A DNA stretch of 64,000 nt. Origin: Gracilibacteraceae bacterium. GTDB taxonomy: Bacteria; Bacillota; Desulfitobacteriia; Desulfitobacteriales; Syntrophobotulaceae. The stretch spans positions 1 through 64,000 of the forward strand of contig JAISAH010000111.1 in assembly GCA_031266805.1 (NCBI GenBank), given 5' to 3'. Shown in pieces: positions 108 to 32,481 of this stretch. A program made the position numbers and the translations under genes. The notes under the pieces were generated by a model. It worked only from the letters and a program-made list of their open reading frames with translations. It was not told where the DNA came from and did no database searches. Position 1 is the first letter of the stretch; every line of letters starts with the position of its first letter.

Positions 108-3100
108 CTATCCGCCGAAAGCGTAGAGCTTGGTCTCCGGGGTGATGGCCCCGAAATCCGCGCCCGCGGGATCGTTCCCCGGCAGGAGGACGATGGCGGC
201 CTTAGTCTGGGCGGCGAGGGCGGAGCCGGTCAGGGCGTCCACCAGAGTATTCCCGTCCGCCGTGTAAATATTCGTGTACTCAAAGTTCAGGGCGTCGCGG
301 ACGGCCTTGTTCGTCTCATAGCGCGTCGCGCCGTAGAGCCTTGTGGCCCCGGCCACGTCACGCACCAGAGTTGGGCCGCCCAGAATATAGACCTCTCCCG
401 TCGGCGCGCCGCTGACGCTGCCATCAGGACTGGCTATTTGGATAGCGTAGCCGTTGGCGGCGGCGAATGAAGCCGCGCTGACGGCGTCGGCGATAGCGTT
501 ATAACCGACGATGAATGTGCCTTTCGGGGCGGTCAGTTTCGCGCCCACCAGTTCCGCCGTCTCAAAACGGCTGGCCCCGCGTAAAGTCTCAACCGTGAGA
601 CCGGGCAGCGCCGCCTGCAGCGCGCCGATCACATCTTGGCTGATGGCGCCGACGGCGTAAACTTTCTTAGCGCCCAGGCGCTGGATCTCCGCGACCACAG
701 CGGGGTCAAGGGTTCCGGTACTGAGGAGGATCGGGGCTTTTTCCTGACCGGCCAGCGGCGCGACGGCCAGCGCGTCGATCAGGTTATTCTGCCCGCCGGG
801 AGCGAGGATTACCGCCTCGGCGCTCGTCCAGCCCTGACGGGAGATGGCGACGGAAGTTTGCACCCGGTCCGCGCCGCTGATATAACTGAGGCTGGCTTTG
901 CTCACCGTGATCGGCGCGGCTGCTTCCGGAATGGCGGTTGTCGCCAAGCCGCCGCCCCCGTTCGGAGAAGGTTTCCCGACCGGCGGGTCTGGCGTGACCG
1001 CCTTTTCCACATAGCCGACCGCGTAATAGGAGAGATGATTGGTATAAAATGTCACTCTGCTAGTGTCCGAGTTGTAATCCACCGCCCCCGGCATGGGTTC
1101 GCTGTCATACCAGACTGTAATCGTGACCCGCGCCGGGTCTATGCTGTCCGGCAGCGCGTATGGCAAAGAGATTGTGAGATTGCCGCCGAAATTCCGTATC
1201 TGTTCTTTGGTGTCGCCCTCCACATAGTAAACGCTCAGGTCAAACACTTGGGCGCCCTTGGCGCTTTCCGGCAGCGCGTCCAGCTCTGCCTGTTCCTGCG
1301 CCTGCGCCGGCTTGCTGATAACGACGTTCACGTCTTTACCCGCACCCGCCTGCGCGCGTGCAGTGCCGAGCGTCTCCCGGTCAAAGCTGATGCTGCCCAC
1401 CGGCGATGTGATGGTAATGGTTTCCAAGGCGCTGTCTTCTTTCTCCAGTTCTTCGAGTAAAACATCGAGCGCCGCCGGCGGCAGGGCCACATAGACCGCG
1501 TCTACAGCCGTCACGCCCTCCGGCAGGGTATCAGGTAAATTCACGCTGATTTCTAGAGTTGTAGTGTTGTTCCCCACGGCCTCTTGCACCGCGTCTGTGA
1601 CAAAATCCTCGTCTACTGTGACCGCGGCGGCCGGAGCGCCGTTATCGCCCGTGATGATATCCTTCGGCGCGACTTCTATCGGGACGCTCGTCGGGGCTTC
1701 ATCGGGAGGCTGAGGCGGAGCGACCGCTGGCAGCAAAGCCTCGATAGCCGCCAGAATCGCCGCCGTCCGTGTGTCGATCATGGTCTGGGTCACGCCCTCC
1801 AGGGTTTTCAGGGTCTGGCCTGCCCGAACGCCGGCTAAGAGAGCGGCGTAAGACTCGGGGCTATAGGCGCTCGCGTTTGCGCTCACGTTCCCGGCCGCCG
1901 TTATCGCCGCGTCCAGAGCGGAGGCGTCAGGCGCCTCGCCGTCCAGGTCGATCCCGCTCCAGTCGATCCACAGCCGGGCCGGCTGGTTAGCCGACGCGCC
2001 CATGATCGGGACGTTCACGTAGACGTCCGTCCACTCCACGCCCGGCGTGACTTCTATCCCGAGTTCTTTCGGGTAAAGCCAATCCTCACCCGTGTTGAAA
2101 CTGTCTTTAGTATCGTAGTGGCTGTAAACCTCAGCCGGGACCAGCTTATAAGTTACAAGGATCCCGCCGTCATCTTTAACAACATTTTCCATTTTGGAAA
2201 ACTCTTTTAAGGAACCCTGCTGTCCCAAAAAGGTTAGGGGTTGGAAGATCAGGCGCAATTCGACTTTCCCATTTTCGACCACGAGCTTAGACTGAGCGTG
2301 GTCGATGGCGTTGTTGCCCATGGAATATTGATTCTGCGTATAGTGCCACAGTTCGGTCTTGTTCGCGAGGGAATATTCGCCGTCGATGAGGCCGACCAGC
2401 AGATCGTCCTCGGCGGCCAGCGCCGTCTGAGCGGCCTCGAGTGCGGCGATCTGCGCCGTGATTTGCTCCGCGCTCAGACCGCCGGCCAACAGCGCCGCCT
2501 TAGCCGCTTCGACGGCGGCGGTCAGCGCCGTGTAAGAACTGGCGATATAGCCTGTGCCCTCTATCGCCTCAGCCGCCGCGACAGCGGCTTCCAGCGCCGC
2601 CTCGTCCGCCGCCGGCCGCGCGGCCTCAGCCTCGGCCAGCGCGGCGGCCACGGCTTCTTTGATGCCGTTACTGGCCAACGTCGCGCCGGTTATGGCGTCC
2701 ACGTCCTCCAGACTCACGCCGCCAGCGGCCTGAGCCGTCATGATCTGAGCGGGCACGGAAGCCGCGGTCTGCCCGCTCACCACACCCGTGCCGCCGTTGG
2801 TAAAGGCCATGGCGAAATAGCCGGGGGTCTGAGCGTGCGTTCCGGCCGTGATGCCGAGGATACGCCTGTCGCTCACTTCTACATTGATTTCGATCGCGGC
2901 GCTGCCGTTGCCGGCATAGCCCCGGCCCACGCCCTTATAGACGCCGGGGCCGTAGATGACCGGCCAGTCGCTGTCGTCGATATCCGTTTCCGTCTCCCGC
3001 GCCAAGGCTATAGCTTCCCGCAGCGCGGTTTTTGCCGTCTGGATCCCGTCTGAATCCAAACCGGTCTTATTATATTGAGTCTGAGCCGCGCTGATCGCCG

Positions 3101-5201
3101 CCCGCAGATCCATGACTTTCTCCAGCGCGACTGTTTCCAGCGCCCGCCGCGCTTCCTTCAAGGCGGCGGCCAAAACGTTCTTGTCATAGCCGGCGAGAGG
3201 GTTCTCCCCATCAAACAGCGTGGCTGAGGTGACGACTAGCCGAGCATAGCGCGAGCCAAATTCCATAATAGGGATGTCCATTAATATACGGTATTCGTCT
3301 CTGGCGCTGGGTGACGCTAGTGGTAGAATTATACGTTTCGGAAATTCAATGTTGTAATTCTCATGGATATTCTGTGATACCCCATCCACATCGTTGGCGA
3401 TGATTTCCTCGTCTGTAAAGTAAGAGAGGTGTTCTGCGGGCACATTGTCATGATATATTTCGCTCAAATAACCCTGAAGCGTTTCTCCCACATAAACAGA
3501 TCTGTTCTGCAAATACAGTAGCGGTGTCTGGCCAGCGACCGTCTCAATGTAGCCCCATTCATTCTCAATGGCGGTGTTGCCCATAGAAGGTTGATCTTCG
3601 TGATCATTCATAATAGCGACGGAAACTCGGTACAGCCCGGAAGGAAGATTATCCGTCCTGATGCCGGGGACCATCTCGCCGATAAAGTATGAAGCGTTCA
3701 ATGCTTTTATATCCTTTGTCGAGACCTCAGCAAAGAGTCCGTCCTCACTAACGGTAAAAGGGACGTTATAGTTGATTTCTTTATCGGCGGTCAGCCATCT
3801 GTGAATTCGGATTTTATTTGTATCCCATTCCGCCGGTATGGGGAAACAGACTGTGACGTCATTCACAGGAGCAAAAGTATGCCCTGCTGTGTTGAGTAGC
3901 CCAAGTGCGTAAACACGGTATCGATCCGTGTCGCTACCGCTGAGGGCAGCCATTGCGGCAAAATCCCCTGGACGCATATTGGGAAGCGCCGGATCGTATT
4001 CGCTGTATTGCTCAGCAGAAAAATCCGCACTAGCTGGAATAGCGGTGCTGAGATAGCGGAGAGCTACGCCTGATTCGGTTTGCTTGACTTCCGCGCTGAT
4101 AGGTACATAACTTAAATGTAGCCAGGCATTAGCAGTTTGTGAGACATCTTTATTATTGTAGAGAGTTTTTGTATGGAGTTTTAAGTATACACCAAAAATC
4201 AGATCGGTGTAGTCCATATCCAATTCAAAAGTGCTCGCGTCTATTATTTCCACATTGGCCCACGCCGCCCCCATCTGCTCATTTAGGTAATATCGAGGGT
4301 TTGCCTCCGAAGCAAGCTTCCTGCCGCTCGCTTTTTGTAGAGTGAACTCATCATCAGACTCTTTGAGCTTGAAAACAGCCTTGAGCTTCCCTGCGTCGTC
4401 CACCGCCACCTCAGCGCCCGCGAGGAAATCCGGCACAGTGTAGGCTGAATTGACTCTAGTCGCTGTATTGTCAGTGCCAGTTCCGGTATATATATTAGGG
4501 TTAGTCCAAAAGCAACTCATTTCGTAAAAGCCTTCATCCAACGATCCATCAGGCAGGGAGATAGCCACGTCGGTATTGAAGACTATACTTTGGTCAACAA
4601 AGCTATAACCTGCTGCAGTAATAGCGTCTGAGTAAGCCCTAGTCCATACCTCGGTCGGTTTGCTACTCAGCGAAAATGTGAGAAGCCCTGTATCCATCGT
4701 TTCATCGTCGATTTCTCGCTGCACACCACTTAGGTAGTATTCATTATTTATCGCGTCTATCGTTCCTTTGTCCGTCAGTTCCACCAGCAAGTCCGCCGGG
4801 CAATCAAGGGTTCCCGGTTTGAGTTTCGCCAAATCAGTATAGGCGCTACCATAACTGTCTTTTATTGCGCTGTGACAGTCCGGGTCAACGATGGATATGA
4901 AGTCAATAACACTGTACGAATTGTATTGCAGTGTGATTGTGTATTCCCCCGCGCCGTCACTATATACAAGCGCGCGCTCATTGAACTGAATACGTTGGCT
5001 GGCTTGGAGCGCCTGTGGGGCGACTACTCTGTATAATTGAATCGGAACAGAATAATACCCCGCGGCCAAATGTTCAGCCACAGGATCGCCACTACCATCG
5101 GCCCAAACAGGTGCAAGGCTGTAACTAAACGGTTGGGCTAGAACTATTACCATCAAAAGCACAGCCATTTTGCGCAACAACGGCAAGTTGCTATTTTTCA
5201 T
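108..5201 (-). CDS. Large secreted surface protein: signal peptide, several NEAT-like domains, FMN_bind domain, C-terminal CWB2 cell-wall-binding repeats
   Basis: 1697-aa ORF; N-terminal signal peptide (LLRKMAVLLMVIVLAQPFSYSLAPVWA); NEAT-like blocks (GLYRVSVAIMNDHEDQPSMGNTAIENEWG; GEYSLANKTELWHYTQNQYSMGNNAIDHAQSKLVVENGKVELRLIFQPL); FMN_bind-like YKGVGRGYAGNGSAAIEINVEVSDRRI...DAITGATLASNGIKEAV; CWB2-like ISGADRVQTSVAISRQGW...RLYGATRYETNKAV. Confidence 0.85.
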   Translation of the reverse strand: MKNSNLPLLRKMAVLLMVIVLAQPFSYSLAPVWADGSGDPVAEHLAAGYYSVPIQLYRVVAPQALQASQRIQFNERALVYSDGAGEYTITLQYNSYSVIDFISIVDPDCHSAIKDSYGSAYTDLAKLKPGTLDCPADLLVELTDKGTIDAINNEYYLSGVQREIDDETMDTGLLTFSLSSKPTEVWTRAYSDAITAAGYSFVDQSIVFNTDVAISLPDGSLDEGFYEMSCFWTNPNIYTGTGTDNTATRVNSAYTVPDFLAGAEVAVDDAGKLKAVFKLKESDDEFTLQKASGRKLASEANPRYYLNEQMGAAWANVEIIDASTFELDMDYTDLIFGVYLKLHTKTLYNNKDVSQTANAWLHLSYVPISAEVKQTESGVALRYLSTAIPASADFSAEQYSEYDPALPNMRPGDFAAMAALSGSDTDRYRVYALGLLNTAGHTFAPVNDVTVCFPIPAEWDTNKIRIHRWLTADKEINYNVPFTVSEDGLFAEVSTKDIKALNASYFIGEMVPGIRTDNLPSGLYRVSVAIMNDHEDQPSMGNTAIENEWGYIETVAGQTPLLYLQNRSVYVGETLQGYLSEIYHDNVPAEHLSYFTDEEIIANDVDGVSQNIHENYNIEFPKRIILPLASPSARDEYRILMDIPIMEFGSRYARLVVTSATLFDGENPLAGYDKNVLAAALKEARRALETVALEKVMDLRAAISAAQTQYNKTGLDSDGIQTAKTALREAIALARETETDIDDSDWPVIYGPGVYKGVGRGYAGNGSAAIEINVEVSDRRILGITAGTHAQTPGYFAMAFTNGGTGVVSGQTAASVPAQIMTAQAAGGVSLEDVDAITGATLASNGIKEAVAAALAEAEAARPAADEAALEAAVAAAEAIEGTGYIASSYTALTAAVEAAKAALLAGGLSAEQITAQIAALEAAQTALAAEDDLLVGLIDGEYSLANKTELWHYTQNQYSMGNNAIDHAQSKLVVENGKVELRLIFQPLTFLGQQGSLKEFSKMENVVKDDGGILVTYKLVPAEVYSHYDTKDSFNTGEDWLYPKELGIEVTPGVEWTDVYVNVPIMGASANQPARLWIDWSGIDLDGEAPDASALDAAITAAGNVSANASAYSPESYAALLAGVRAGQTLKTLEGVTQTMIDTRTAAILAAIEALLPAVAPPQPPDEAPTSVPIEVAPKDIITGDNGAPAAAVTVDEDFVTDAVQEAVGNNTTTLEISVNLPDTLPEGVTAVDAVYVALPPAALDVLLEELEKEDSALETITITSPVGSISFDRETLGTARAQAGAGKDVNVVISKPAQAQEQAELDALPESAKGAQVFDLSVYYVEGDTKEQIRNFGGNLTISLPYALPDSIDPARVTITVWYDSEPMPGAVDYNSDTSRVTFYTNHLSYYAVGYVEKAVTPDPPVGKPSPNGGGGLATTAIPEAAAPITVSKASLSYISGADRVQTSVAISRQGWTSAEAVILAPGGQNNLIDALAVAPLAGQEKAPILLSTGTLDPAVVAEIQRLGAKKVYAVGAISQDVIGALQAALPGLTVETLRGASRFETAELVGAKLTAPKGTFIVGYNAIADAVSAASFAAANGYAIQIASPDGSVSGAPTGEVYILGGPTLVRDVAGATRLYGATRYETNKAVRDALNFEYTNIYTADGNTLVDALTGSALAAQTKAAIVLLPGNDPAGADFGAITPETKLYAFGG

Positions 5202-28535: not shown

Positions 28536-28622
28536 CTCCCCTTGCTAATATTACCACAGTAAAAGGCAAAATAAAAGAGCGTTTCGCAATATTCAAGGCA
28601 AGGGCTCGTTGAACGTTGAATC

Positions 28623-29774
28623 CTAGACCCGCCGCATTATGACCTTAAAATTGTTGCCCTCGCGGTCGTCAATAAATTCAATATTAGGATACGCTTCTAT
28701 CGCCCTGAGGATGCCGGAACCGTAGCCTCGGTAGGGGATGATGTGATAAGCAAACGAAGCAAGCGCCGGATTTCTTGTACAGGAATTCCCCAACTTGATA
28801 TTTTCGACCTGTAAATTGTTTGGGAGACGACCCGGGCTGATGATCTCTACTCTGTCACGGAAAACAAATACGCGTACAGGCGCGGAAATAAAATAGTCTC
28901 TATGCACCAAGGCATTGGAAATTATTTCCTCTATCGCGCCGCGGGGTATTTCGGGTATTCCTGCGCTGTTAAATCCTTGATCGCCTTGAACATGGCGGAG
29001 GTTGGCGATGATGAAATCGACGGTCCTCGCGAATATTTCTTCAAGTTTTCCGCTAAATTCTCTTTCATCCGCATAGGTGTTTGTGCTGATTTTCGTATCA
29101 TTGAACGCTCCCGCTTTGACAATAAAAGCGGGCAGGAACGAACCTGTATTCTTGCCAAAAACAATCGCGCACGTCAAGTTCAGGCAGCCGCCGTTCAGCA
29201 AATTCAAGTTGCGCAACAACTGCGGCAGAGGAAGGTTCTGGCTTTCCAGTGTTTTCCCGTAGCGGCGGCGGAAAAACGACTGAAAATAATCTAAATCCAG
29301 ATCTGCGGCCGTCATGCTGGAAACACGCGCCTCATCAGCGTGAATGAAATCGGATTCCTGAAACATGCGCTGCAATTCTTCTCTGGAAGTCGCCTTGCGT
29401 TTGTCGGCGCCGCTTTTGACCCAGAATACGCCGTCTTTATCCTGATACGGACGGTTGGATCCGGCGGAGACCGTCACAATCAGCACAACGCCATTCCCGG
29501 TGACGATGTTTTCGGTGATTGGATTGATCGCCGGGCGCACATTTTGACTGGCGACGTTTGAAATCATCGTGTTCAGCCGCCGCACTCCGGCGTCGTCCAG
29601 ACCGGAAATCAAGCCGGTCTTGTCGTCGACGCCGATGAATATGCGACCGCCGCCGCCGTTAGCAAAAGCGACCATCTCCGCGGCGAGCTGATCTGAATTG
29701 TAAAAATCCGATTTAAACTGGTGCTTGCTGTCCTCTCCGGCGGCGAGAATTTGAGCCAGTTCTAAGAGTTCCAT
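28623..29774 (-). CDS. AlbA_2 (Schlafen-type) domain protein with C-terminal ATPase-like (COG2865-type) region
   Basis: EDSKHQFKSDFYNSDQLAAEMVAFANGGGGRIFIGVDDKTGLISGLDDAGV (AlbA_2); GAIEEIISNALVHRDYFISAPVRVFVFRDRVEIISPGRLP (HATPase_c_4-like). Confidence 0.85.
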   Translation of the reverse strand: MELLELAQILAAGEDSKHQFKSDFYNSDQLAAEMVAFANGGGGRIFIGVDDKTGLISGLDDAGVRRLNTMISNVASQNVRPAINPITENIVTGNGVVLIVTVSAGSNRPYQDKDGVFWVKSGADKRKATSREELQRMFQESDFIHADEARVSSMTAADLDLDYFQSFFRRRYGKTLESQNLPLPQLLRNLNLLNGGCLNLTCAIVFGKNTGSFLPAFIVKAGAFNDTKISTNTYADEREFSGKLEEIFARTVDFIIANLRHVQGDQGFNSAGIPEIPRGAIEEIISNALVHRDYFISAPVRVFVFRDRVEIISPGRLPNNLQVENIKLGNSCTRNPALASFAYHIIPYRGYGSGILRAIEAYPNIEFIDDREGNNFKVIMRRV

Positions 29775-32368
29775 GACTGATAGATCTCCTTGCGCTTATT
29801 GAATGCCTCTCTGCCGCCTTCCATGACGTTCACGACGGTCTGTTGCTGCTGCGGATCGTCTAAGCCGCCGGACTGAATAGTAACGGCGTTTTCCGCGAAT
29901 GAGCAGGCAATGATTTGTTCGGCGTCGCCCAGAACAGGGATGTTGGGATTATGGGTCGCCAAAATAAATTGGGTTTTAGGTTTCAGCGCGCGGATCAGTT
30001 TGATCACGTCCTCGTAGATGGTTTGATTGTCCAAATCGTCTTCGGGCTGGTCGATGAGGATAAGGTCGTTGTCGTTCTGACTGAGGATAAACAGGATCAG
30101 GGCGGAGGCGCGTTGTCCCAGGGAATGCCGCTGGAGTTCCTTGCCATGGTATTGGATAACGAAACGGTTGGGGACTTGAAAAATCAAAAATTCCGCCAGA
30201 TCGCGGTTGAAGCAATTCGTGAAAAGTTCGGGGTTGCTGCCGAGGAGGCCCTTTTTTCTGGCTTCCGCGTAATTTTGGAAGAGTTCGGCGAAGTCGGCGT
30301 AATAGTCAACGATTCCCTTCAACGTGGATTCACGAATACCGGATCCCCGGAACATGTTCTTCGCAAAGTCAAGAAACGCCGCTTTGTCGCCCTTGTATTC
30401 GCAAGAAAGCTTCAGCGCGCCGCTCCGCGCTCCAATAGCGTCAAATTCGCGCTGGATCAAAGCAAACTCCTCATGGCGCAGATTTCCAAGTTCGGCAAGC
30501 CGCGAAAGAAGGAGTTGACTCGCGTTGGCGTTTCGTTCTCTTGATCGGAAAAGTAAAGACAGCTCTTGCTCCACTTGGGCCTGCCGTTGTTTCAGTTGCA
30601 GAAAATCATCCGAACTCACGCGCAAATTCTCGGCCGCCAGCTCTCGCGCCAGATTGCGCTCAATTTCCGCAAACTCTTCGGCAAGAGCAAGTTTATTTTG
30701 AAAGAGTTCCTGCAGCAATGTCTCCATCGCGGCGATTGCTCTGTTGATATGGGGTAATTGCTCACCGGCTTTCTCAAACCCGGATTTCACTTTCTCGTAT
30801 TCGGCCATGAATTTGTTCAGAAACTCCGCGTTATGCTTGGATACATATCCGCCGAGATCAGGCAAAGCGGAATTCGCCAGAAAAGCCGCCAATCCCTGCA
30901 CCACGTTTCTCACACCGGCGACAGCGTCTCGCGTAAACCGAATATCGGCGTCATAATCCAGGCGCTTCTGCAGCCTTGCCTCAATGCCGTGCTGCGCGTA
31001 AACCGTCAAACGATGCAAGACGTCCTGTTTCTCTTTGCCAAGTTCCTCGATCCGCGCGACTGCGGCGCCGGCGTCACGCAATTGAGCGACGCTCTGGCGG
31101 ACGCTTTCCTGCTGCGCCGCTATGCGGCGGCGAACATCCGCCAACTTTGCCGCGACCAATTTCTCGACCAGACCCCGCTCGAATCCTTCGCCGGAGTTTG
31201 ACAAATCTTTCTGCCCAAAATATAAGGGTTTATTGATGACCGTCCCAACGACCGAAATGCCCGGAACGATTTTATCATCAATATATACAACAGGGGATTC
31301 GTTCAGAATGCGTTCAACGCGATACGGCTGCCCGAAACGGTTGACCGCTTGCAGCACGACCTTCCCGCCGCTGTTGAGCGCGTATCTGACAAGTTCGCTT
31401 TTGTATTTTTGCTCGCCGGCGTTCTCGCCAACAGGGATATTCAGCGCGTAGCGAAGCATTTCGATAACGGCGGATTTCCCGCTTCCGCGAATGCCGATCA
31501 GCGTATTGAGTTCCGGCGAAAACGAGATACTCTTCCCGTCCAGAATACCGCCGACGAATTGGGCGCCGCGGACATGAGAATGGGAAGTTTTAGGCGGTTC
31601 CGCGTTTACTCTGTTTTCATGATCAAGCAGCGCAAACTTGACGGCTTCAAAGGTAGGCGCGCCGAGCTTGATAAAGCAAGTCTTACCCCGGCCTATCTCC
31701 TCTATCGATTTAGGGTCGCTGCCTTCAACTTCGGCGGGATACCAGCCCCCAAGCCATTGTTTGACTTTCCCTCTGTCGTCGCGGGTGCGAACTTTTTGAA
31801 ATCCAAGCGCGCGGCGTTTGAAAAACTCATTTTGCCCAATCTCCTGCAAGCGCCCGCCATTCAATTCCTTCCATAGCCCGCCGGACTGTTCTACATGGGC
31901 AAACAAGATAAAGAAGTCCTTTTGGTATCCTTCGAGTTTTTTGATAGTATCAATCAAACCAAGGGAATTCCTGCCATTTTCGCTTTCATATTGCGCCGGT
32001 GTCCGGCCCTCAAACGCTACATTCAGAAATTGATTAATATAATCATGAGAGTATTGCAGCCATTCATCTGAAAAGACGACAAGCGTATGAACGCCGCCGG
32101 CGCCGTCATTTACCGAAAGCTCCACGCCGGGAAGCAGAAAAATCCCCTGATTCTTCGCGGCTGTTCGCAAGGCTTTGAACTCGCCAAAGTCGAATTTATT
32201 ATGGTTGGTAATAATTCCGACAGCGATACCGGCGACCTTTAAGGCATCAACGTAAGAAGACAGATAATAGTCATCGTCTCCGGAATATTCAAAACATTTG
32301 TCAACCCTGGTGTGCAGGTGGAAGTCTGCCCTAAGCCAAGTTGCTCCATGAATAAACAAATTTTCCAT
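29762..32368 (-). CDS. PHP-domain phosphoesterase fused to SMC/ABC-type ATPase with coiled coil (TrlF-like AAA ATPase)
   Basis: PHP motifs DFHLHT, ITNHNKFD, LLPGVELSV, LFAHVEQSGG; Walker A LIGIRGSGKSAVIEML; long coiled coil; signature-like SLGQRASALILFILSQ; Walker B DLILIDQPEDDLDNQ; H-loop FILATHNPNIPVLGDAE. Confidence 0.85.
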   Translation of the reverse strand: MENLFIHGATWLRADFHLHTRVDKCFEYSGDDDYYLSSYVDALKVAGIAVGIITNHNKFDFGEFKALRTAAKNQGIFLLPGVELSVNDGAGGVHTLVVFSDEWLQYSHDYINQFLNVAFEGRTPAQYESENGRNSLGLIDTIKKLEGYQKDFFILFAHVEQSGGLWKELNGGRLQEIGQNEFFKRRALGFQKVRTRDDRGKVKQWLGGWYPAEVEGSDPKSIEEIGRGKTCFIKLGAPTFEAVKFALLDHENRVNAEPPKTSHSHVRGAQFVGGILDGKSISFSPELNTLIGIRGSGKSAVIEMLRYALNIPVGENAGEQKYKSELVRYALNSGGKVVLQAVNRFGQPYRVERILNESPVVYIDDKIVPGISVVGTVINKPLYFGQKDLSNSGEGFERGLVEKLVAAKLADVRRRIAAQQESVRQSVAQLRDAGAAVARIEELGKEKQDVLHRLTVYAQHGIEARLQKRLDYDADIRFTRDAVAGVRNVVQGLAAFLANSALPDLGGYVSKHNAEFLNKFMAEYEKVKSGFEKAGEQLPHINRAIAAMETLLQELFQNKLALAEEFAEIERNLARELAAENLRVSSDDFLQLKQRQAQVEQELSLLFRSRERNANASQLLLSRLAELGNLRHEEFALIQREFDAIGARSGALKLSCEYKGDKAAFLDFAKNMFRGSGIRESTLKGIVDYYADFAELFQNYAEARKKGLLGSNPELFTNCFNRDLAEFLIFQVPNRFVIQYHGKELQRHSLGQRASALILFILSQNDNDLILIDQPEDDLDNQTIYEDVIKLIRALKPKTQFILATHNPNIPVLGDAEQIIACSFAENAVTIQSGGLDDPQQQQTVVNVMEGGREAFNKRKEIYQSWNS

Positions 32369-32448
32369 TTTATGCCTTCATTCTGTACCGCTGTTCAGAC
32401 GTCCCTAAAATCACCGGCATGCTTCGTCACTTCGTTCCTCATCAATTT

Positions 32449-32481
32449 AGTATATCATATTTGACTGTAATATGATATACT
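32449..32481. promoter_or_regulatory. Perfect 12-bp inverted repeat between the PHP-ATPase module and the aldo/keto reductase gene
   Basis: AGTATATCATAT-TTGACTGTA-ATATGATATACT in the divergent intergenic region. Confidence 0.6.

What the first reader, a model, noticed from the sequence alone, without database searches (positions are those of the whole stretch)
28623..32481. Two-gene PHP-ATPase + AlbA_2/Schlafen module: best candidate for an under-described defence-like system
The upstream gene fuses an N-terminal PHP phosphoesterase (DFHLHT, ITNHNKFD, LLPGVELS, LFAHVE) to an SMC/Rad50-like ATPase with long coiled coil (GIRGSGKS ... SLGQRASA ... LILIDQPEDDLDN ... ATHNP). It overlaps by 13 bp the start of an AlbA_2 (Schlafen-like) + HATPase-like protein. 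The pair is flanked by housekeeping operons, looks less GC-rich than its neighbours, and has a perfect 12-bp dyad upstream. PHP phosphoesterases, SMC-like ATPases and AlbA_2/Schlafen domains each recur in conflict and nucleic-acid-sensing systems. A plausible model is a nucleic-acid or tRNA sensor/nuclease pair. That function is inference, not shown by the sequence.
Basis: partly seen in the sequence, partly recalled or inferred. Interest (0 to 1): 0.75.

Follow-up and report, generated by a model that had tools for sequence, protein, structure and literature searches.

The report
Mobile TrlF–TrlG growth-arrest gene pair
The two overlapping genes are a horizontally acquired copy of an already described pair (trlF–trlG, the core of the Photorhabdus temperature-restricting operon) that travels between phyla, often inside restriction-modification gene clusters, and probably stops cell growth when a trigger is sensed; whether that trigger is a phage is untested.

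Summary
29762-32368(-) encodes a full-length TrlF-family ATPase (NF045780, 551 bits, cut-off 350); it overlaps by 13 bp a gene with AlbA_2 and HATPase_c_4 domains. This is trlF-trlG, published in 2020 as the core of the Photorhabdus temperature-restricting locus; trlR is missing here. TrlG is the growth-arrest factor there, and 10 of 11 published loss-of-function missense positions keep the wild-type residue at the same number in the window protein. Among 80 relatives from many phyla, TrlG lies directly downstream in all but two where the contig allows a check. Several copies sit inside type I R-M operons or beside BREX genes. In the window the pair is a 3,864-bp insert absent from a ~95%-identical sister genome; the dyad lies outside it. 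New here: both presumed catalytic centres are altered throughout the pair's clade (PHP DxK; Schlafen second Glu to Gln), so a simple two-nuclease model is doubtful. Best model: TrlF gates or senses, TrlG executes arrest. A new member of a known kind; phage defence is likely but unshown.

The parts
28580..32443 (.). Inserted segment (3,864 bp) that holds the whole module; replaced by 26 bp in the sister genome
   Evidence: Alignment with L154 = G399:C149: about 95% identity on both flanks, insert absent
29762..32368 (-). trlF: PHP domain plus SMC/Rad50-like ATPase with coiled coil, 868 aa
   Evidence: NF045780 551 bits against cut-off 350, whole model; AlphaFold model pLDDT 84.7 with SMC/Rad50/RecF/Wadjet head matches
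28623..29774 (-). trlG: AlbA_2/Schlafen-fold domain plus GHKL (HATPase_c_4) domain, 383 aa
   Evidence: PF04326 14-128 and PF13749 298-363; AlphaFold model pLDDT 87.5 with Schlafen, SAMD9 tRNase-domain and GHKL-kinase matches
29762..29774 (-). 13-bp trlF/trlG overlap; likely translational coupling
   Evidence: relatives overlap by 13, 19 or 22 nt in nearly all loci, always in the same relative frame
29785..29790 (-). Shine-Dalgarno-like AGGAGA inside trlF, 10 nt before the trlG ATG
   Evidence: Sequence read directly
32449..32481 (.). Perfect 13-bp inverted repeat with 7-bp spacer; host NfeD/aldo-keto reductase intergenic element, NOT part of the module
   Evidence: present in the empty site of the sister genome

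Best explanation
This is a mobile TrlF-TrlG module (trlF-trlG of the TRL operon) whose most likely job is conditional growth arrest in the context of defence against foreign DNA. Shown here: the family assignment, the conserved overlapping pair, co-divergence, insertion, frequent placement in R-M/BREX clusters, and intact ATPase motifs. Shown in the literature, in Photorhabdus: TrlG is the factor that stops growth. Inferred: TrlF, an SMC/Rad50-like ATPase with a PHP head, binds a nucleic-acid or nucleotide signal and controls TrlG. TrlG, a GHKL-type protein with a Schlafen-fold domain, acts when released or activated and blocks a central process, probably by binding or cleaving RNA such as tRNA. 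I favour TrlF as restrainer/gate rather than obligate activator, as AriA is for AriB and as a type I R-M complex is for PrrC (established knowledge).
For: Family and domains. TrlG matches the published TrlG domain layout to within two residues (AlbA_2 14-128, HATPase_c_4 298-365; PMC7554251) and keeps 10 of 11 published loss-of-function missense residues at identical numbers. Pairing: TrlG downstream at all loci with room except L107 and L112, overlaps 13/19/22 nt. Co-divergence r 0.94, best of 999 permutations 0.29. Defence and mobile context: inside hsdR-trlF-trlG-hsdS-ATPase-hsdM on an IncC plasmid with Tn7-like genes upstream and on E. coli chromosomes (38 of 5,426 genomes); hsdR directly upstream in 11 of 80 loci; REase_I 9, PglX 6, PrrC 6, BrxH 5, DrmD 4 among the nearest neighbours. 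Insertion with empty sister site and cross-phylum tree. Gate rather than activator: 16 distinct lesions in trlG and none in the larger trlF in the published screen; if loss of either gene sufficed, a length-only model gives about (383/1251)^16, near 6e-9 (my arithmetic, window gene lengths as proxy). PDB names the related ATPase AriA an 'antitoxin'.
Against: No anti-phage assay exists for this pair in the papers I could search; the only published phenotype is temperature-dependent arrest. TrlF without TrlG is common on F-type and Listeria plasmids, so TrlF must do something alone. One intact-looking TrlG without TrlF exists (L174), which sits badly with a strict toxin-antitoxin rule. In the window itself the neighbours are housekeeping genes, none of ten matching a PADLOC model. 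The neighbour census has no matched random-gene control beyond those ten.
Confidence: 0.5

Rival explanations
1. Two-nuclease defence system: TrlF is a Ppl-like PHP 3'-5' exonuclease gated by its NTPase, and TrlG is a Schlafen-type tRNase; both cut nucleic acid during infection.
For: TrlF is related to the anti-phage exonuclease Ppl (178 bits; Ppl biochemistry summarised in PMC12904381). TrlG folds like Schlafens and the SAMD9 tRNase domain. Most presumed PHP metal ligands (H17, H19, H56, E83, H94, H158, D218) are invariant or nearly so. E14 is kept in 69 of 70 TrlG.
Against: K220 stands where PHP proteins usually have the His of DxH, in 78 of 78, and N55 replaces the Asp of TDHN; of 13 distant TrlF-family proteins, 13 keep that Asp and 9 keep DxH. 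Q19 replaces the second Schlafen Glu in 70 of 70, while 20 of 20 other AlbA_2 proteins in relatives that the motif scan caught have Glu or Asp. In SLFN13, Ala at the matching Glu is inactive (PMC5862951).
Confidence: 0.22
2. A dedicated temperature or stress growth-control switch, not a defence system.
For: Published: the Photorhabdus operon is induced on temperature up-shift and TrlG then limits growth (PMC7554251).
Against: Patchy cross-phylum spread, conjugative plasmids, residence inside hsd and beside BREX genes, and an empty site in the sister genome fit a mobile conflict module better. Arrest at high temperature could be accidental triggering.
Confidence: 0.1
3. A mobile-element retention or superinfection module: plasmid addiction, or protection of the carrier against competing elements.
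For: TrlF relatives are found on 246 plasmid records, 174 of them conjugative; solo TrlF on F plasmids is next to the toxin-antitoxin genes ccdAB and vapB; MobA/L and resolvase genes are common neighbours.
Against: The window copy and many others are chromosomal and unlinked to plasmid genes; in Photorhabdus the whole operon could be deleted, so it is not addictive there.
Confidence: 0.13

Closest known systems
TRL operon trlR-trlF-trlG of Photorhabdus laumondii (PMC7554251)
   Same: Same two genes in the same order; same domain positions in TrlG; conserved functional residues
   Different: No trlR-like small HTH gene next to it here; different host and insertion site; temperature phenotype unknown here
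NCBIfam NF045780 TrlF family AAA-like ATPase
   Same: Full-length match well above cut-off
   Different: Belongs to the TNHN/SDxK subclade that pairs with TrlG; most TrlF-family genes sampled in the same phylum have no TrlG match within the ~1.5 kb flanks held
Ppl (single-gene anti-phage PHP-NTPase, NF042955)
   Same: PHP plus ATPase architecture, detectable homology
   Different: Far below the family cut-off (178 against 1000 bits); not a single gene; PHP motif altered
Bacterial Schlafen/AlbA_2 effectors, including those reported in BREX loci (PMC12839542)
   Same: AlbA_2 plus GHKL-type domain, placed in defence loci
   Different: Second catalytic Glu is invariantly Gln; coupled to TrlF; no C-terminal wHTH detected by Pfam in the window protein
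PARIS (AriA/AriB) and PrrC in type I R-M operons
   Same: ABC/SMC-type ATPase controlling or accompanying an effector; TrlF-TrlG sits in hsd operons like PrrC, in some beside a PrrC-family ATPase
   Different: Effector fold is Schlafen/GHKL, not TOPRIM or the PrrC nuclease; the ATPase carries a PHP domain

Membership tests
TRL operon (trlR-trlF-trlG) | TrlF-family ATPase | tested here: met
   NF045780 551 bits, cut-off 350
TRL operon (trlR-trlF-trlG) | TrlG with AlbA_2 near 14-128 and HATPase_c_4 near 298-365, directly downstream | tested here: met
   14-128 and 298-363, 13-bp overlap
TRL operon (trlR-trlF-trlG) | Residues needed for TrlG activity conserved | tested here: met
   10 of 11 published missense positions identical
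TRL operon (trlR-trlF-trlG) | Small upstream regulator trlR | tested here: not met
   Only 75 bp of insert precede trlF; the paper itself shows trlF-trlG as separable from trlR in Yersinia ruckeri pYR3
TRL operon (trlR-trlF-trlG) | Growth arrest on temperature up-shift | not testable with these tools
   Needs an experiment
Ppl anti-phage system | Match above the Ppl family cut-off | tested here: not met
   178 bits against 1000
Ppl anti-phage system | Canonical PHP DxH motif | tested here: not met
   SDPK in the window; K220 in 78 of 78 relatives. Ppl itself was not at hand for comparison
Ppl anti-phage system | Stand-alone single gene | tested here: not met
   TrlG adjacent in nearly all close relatives
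Schlafen-type ribonuclease | AlbA_2/Schlafen fold | tested here: met
   PF04326; Foldseek matches to SLFN and SAMD9
Schlafen-type ribonuclease | Glu-Glu-Asp catalytic triad | tested here: not met
   E14 kept, Q19 in 70 of 70, D51 in 53 of 70; register rests on the E-x4-[EDQ]-F-K motif, not on a residue-level structural superposition
PARIS/PrrC-like guarded effector | ATPase or R-M complex restrains the effector until triggered | tested here: inconclusive
   Only indirect: location in hsd operons and the published mutant spectrum
PADLOC-named defence system | Dedicated model for the pair | tested here: not met
   Best PADLOC matches are partial: Ppl and PDC-M49A for TrlF, pAgo and PDC-S50 for TrlG

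The most novel reading that the evidence does not exclude
TrlF-TrlG is a separate class of defence module in which a PHP phosphoesterase and a Schlafen domain have both lost their canonical catalytic set and work as an ATP-gated sensor and a binding-type (or re-wired) growth-arrest effector, guarding type I R-M and BREX systems much as PrrC does.
Probability: 0.25. Interest if true: 0.7.

Novelty: new member of a known kind. Interest (0 to 1): 0.45.

Why it matters
It ties a locus published as a temperature-restriction factor to the defence repertoire: the same pair is mobile across phyla and sits inside R-M operons. That makes a testable claim, that 'temperature restriction' may be mis-triggered defence. 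It also flags that the AlbA_2 and PHP labels should not be read as active nucleases in this clade, because the catalytic residues differ in every member examined.

Tried and rejected
PHP assignment by PDB sequence search: no PHP hit even with a clade profile, so it rests on motifs and on NCBIfam/PADLOC relatives. An apparent trlF-trlG gene fusion in L064 was rejected: it is a run of N at a scaffold gap. The dyad as module operator was rejected. I looked for Ppl proper in the phylum to compare active sites: none above cut-off in 200 genomes, so distant TrlF-family members served instead. The primary Ppl paper was not found in the library and the 'Bacterial Schlafens' preprint is not held there. 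The promoter/terminator scan gave nothing clearly above shuffles. No paper held uses the name 'TrlF family'.

Full report
OBSERVATION. The window holds two overlapping genes on the minus strand. The first, 29762-32368, matches NCBIfam NF045780 'TrlF family AAA-like ATPase' over the whole model at 551 bits, well above the cut-off of 350. The second, 28623-29774, holds AlbA_2 (PF04326, residues 14-128) and HATPase_c_4 (PF13749, 298-363). They overlap by 13 bp, and the trlG start is preceded by AGGAGA inside trlF. The GC dip is real: 0.511 for the insert, 0.608 to the left and 0.566 to the right.

IDENTITY. The pair corresponds to trlF-trlG of the temperature-restricting locus of Photorhabdus laumondii, published in 2020 (PMC7554251). 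That paper gives AlbA_2 at 14-128 and HATPase_c_4 at 298-365 for TrlG. It reports that mutations relieving growth arrest fall in trlG and none in trlF. Of the 11 missense positions listed there, 10 carry the wild-type residue at the same number in the window protein. The small trlR gene of that operon is absent here: only 75 bp of the insert precede trlF.

THE PAIR IS A UNIT. A scan of one genome per species with a TrlF profile found 470 relatives; the best 80 come from many phyla. TrlG lies directly downstream at every locus with enough contig except L107 and L112; it is truncated at L076. Overlaps are 13, 19 or 22 nt in almost all, always in the same relative frame. Protein distances correlate at r = 0.94 (best of 999 permutations 0.29). 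The TrlF tree mixes phyla; the window copy groups with a Clostridiales and then a Desulfovibrio copy. An apparent fusion in L064 is a scaffold gap.

MOBILITY AND CONTEXT. In a sister genome of the same genus, both flanks are about 95% identical but window 28580-32443 is replaced by 26 bp. The four other genomes of the genus and nearly all searched genomes of the family lack any TrlF-family match at 1e-60. Elsewhere the pair occurs on conjugative plasmids. On an IncC plasmid it lies inside a type I operon, in the order hsdR-trlF-trlG-hsdS-ATPase-hsdM, downstream of Tn7-like transposition genes; hsdR and hsdS also flank the pair on E. coli chromosomes. hsdR is directly upstream in 11 of 80 loci. 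Among the nearest two genes on each side, PADLOC finds type I R subunits (9), PglX (6), PrrC-family ATPases (6), specificity subunits (7), BrxH (5) and DrmD (4); Pfam adds resolvases and MobA/L. As a small control, ten flanking genes in the window gave no PADLOC match. TrlF without TrlG exists on F-type and Listeria plasmids, and one TrlG without TrlF was seen.

STRUCTURE AND ACTIVE SITES. AlphaFold models are good by confidence (pLDDT 87.5 and 84.7). TrlG matches Schlafens, the SAMD9 tRNase domain and GHKL kinases. TrlF matches SMC, Rad50, RecF and Wadjet heads. ATPase motifs are invariant in 78 TrlF, and the GHKL motif E-x3-N-A and glycine boxes are nearly invariant in 70 TrlG. The presumed catalytic centres are different. 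In TrlF, motif II reads NHN where the family at large has D before the His (13 of 13 distant members keep that Asp), and motif V reads DxK in all 78, while 9 of 13 distant members keep DxH; the other four have Lys, Asp, Glu or Gln. In TrlG, the second glutamate of the Schlafen triad is glutamine in 70 of 70, but Glu or Asp in all 20 other AlbA_2 proteins of relatives caught by the motif scan. The one distant TrlF with an AlbA_2 partner outside the TrlG clade, L015, keeps Glu there. In SLFN13, alanine at the matching glutamate is inactive (PMC5862951). The register rests on the E-x4-[EDQ]-F-K motif, not on residue-level superposition.

MECHANISM. The safest statement is a mobile, ATP-dependent, two-protein growth-arrest module. 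TrlG as executioner is shown in Photorhabdus by others. TrlF as gate is inference: 16 distinct published lesions hit trlG and none the larger trlF, which a length-only model makes very unlikely if loss of either gene sufficed (about 6e-9; my arithmetic). That fits TrlF being dispensable for arrest, or a restrainer. The placement in hsd operons recalls PrrC (established knowledge). What TrlF senses, and whether TrlG cuts, binds or modifies RNA, is unknown. The related single-gene system Ppl responds to nucleotide depletion and DNA 3' ends (PMC12904381), which makes those the first signals to test.

STANDING. Known kind: trlF-trlG is published and TrlF is a curated family. The window copy is a new member. 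What seems new is the link of this pair to R-M and BREX loci with numbers, the clean empty site, and the clade-wide substitutions in both presumed catalytic centres. PMC12839542 reports Schlafen-family RNases with a minimal kinase domain across BREX loci, so the association of AlbA_2 proteins with BREX is not new. A preprint on bacterial Schlafens in anti-phage defence is cited there but could not be read.

Noticed in passing
window 32449-32481: Perfect 13-bp inverted repeat with 7-bp spacer between NfeD and the divergent aldo/keto reductase; kept in the sister genome without the insert, so probably a host operator or promoter element. The insert now lies between it and NfeD, so trlF-trlG may be read from the NfeD promoter.
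   Followed up: partly
G000, ten loci: The genome holds ten AlbA_2 proteins, more than any of the relatives searched.
   Followed up: no
L174:4611-5774: A TrlG orthologue (57% identity, with the Gln19 change) without any TrlF beside it, among housekeeping-like genes, in a genome of the same order.
   Followed up: partly
L029, L030, L031 (plasmids): TrlF of the same subclade without TrlG: next to ccdAB and vapB on F-type plasmids (125 E. coli genomes, plasmid only), and on Sulfitobacter and Listeria plasmids.
   Followed up: partly
L035, L036, L037, L060: The window's nearest TrlF-TrlG copies lie in MAGs of different phyla whose isolate names look like one metagenome series, which suggests exchange within one habitat (inference from titles only).
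   Followed up: no
window 108-5201 (-): Very large ORF (1,697 aa) with cell-wall-binding 2 repeats and an FMN-binding domain, with a GC drop to about 0.46 near its start.
   Followed up: no
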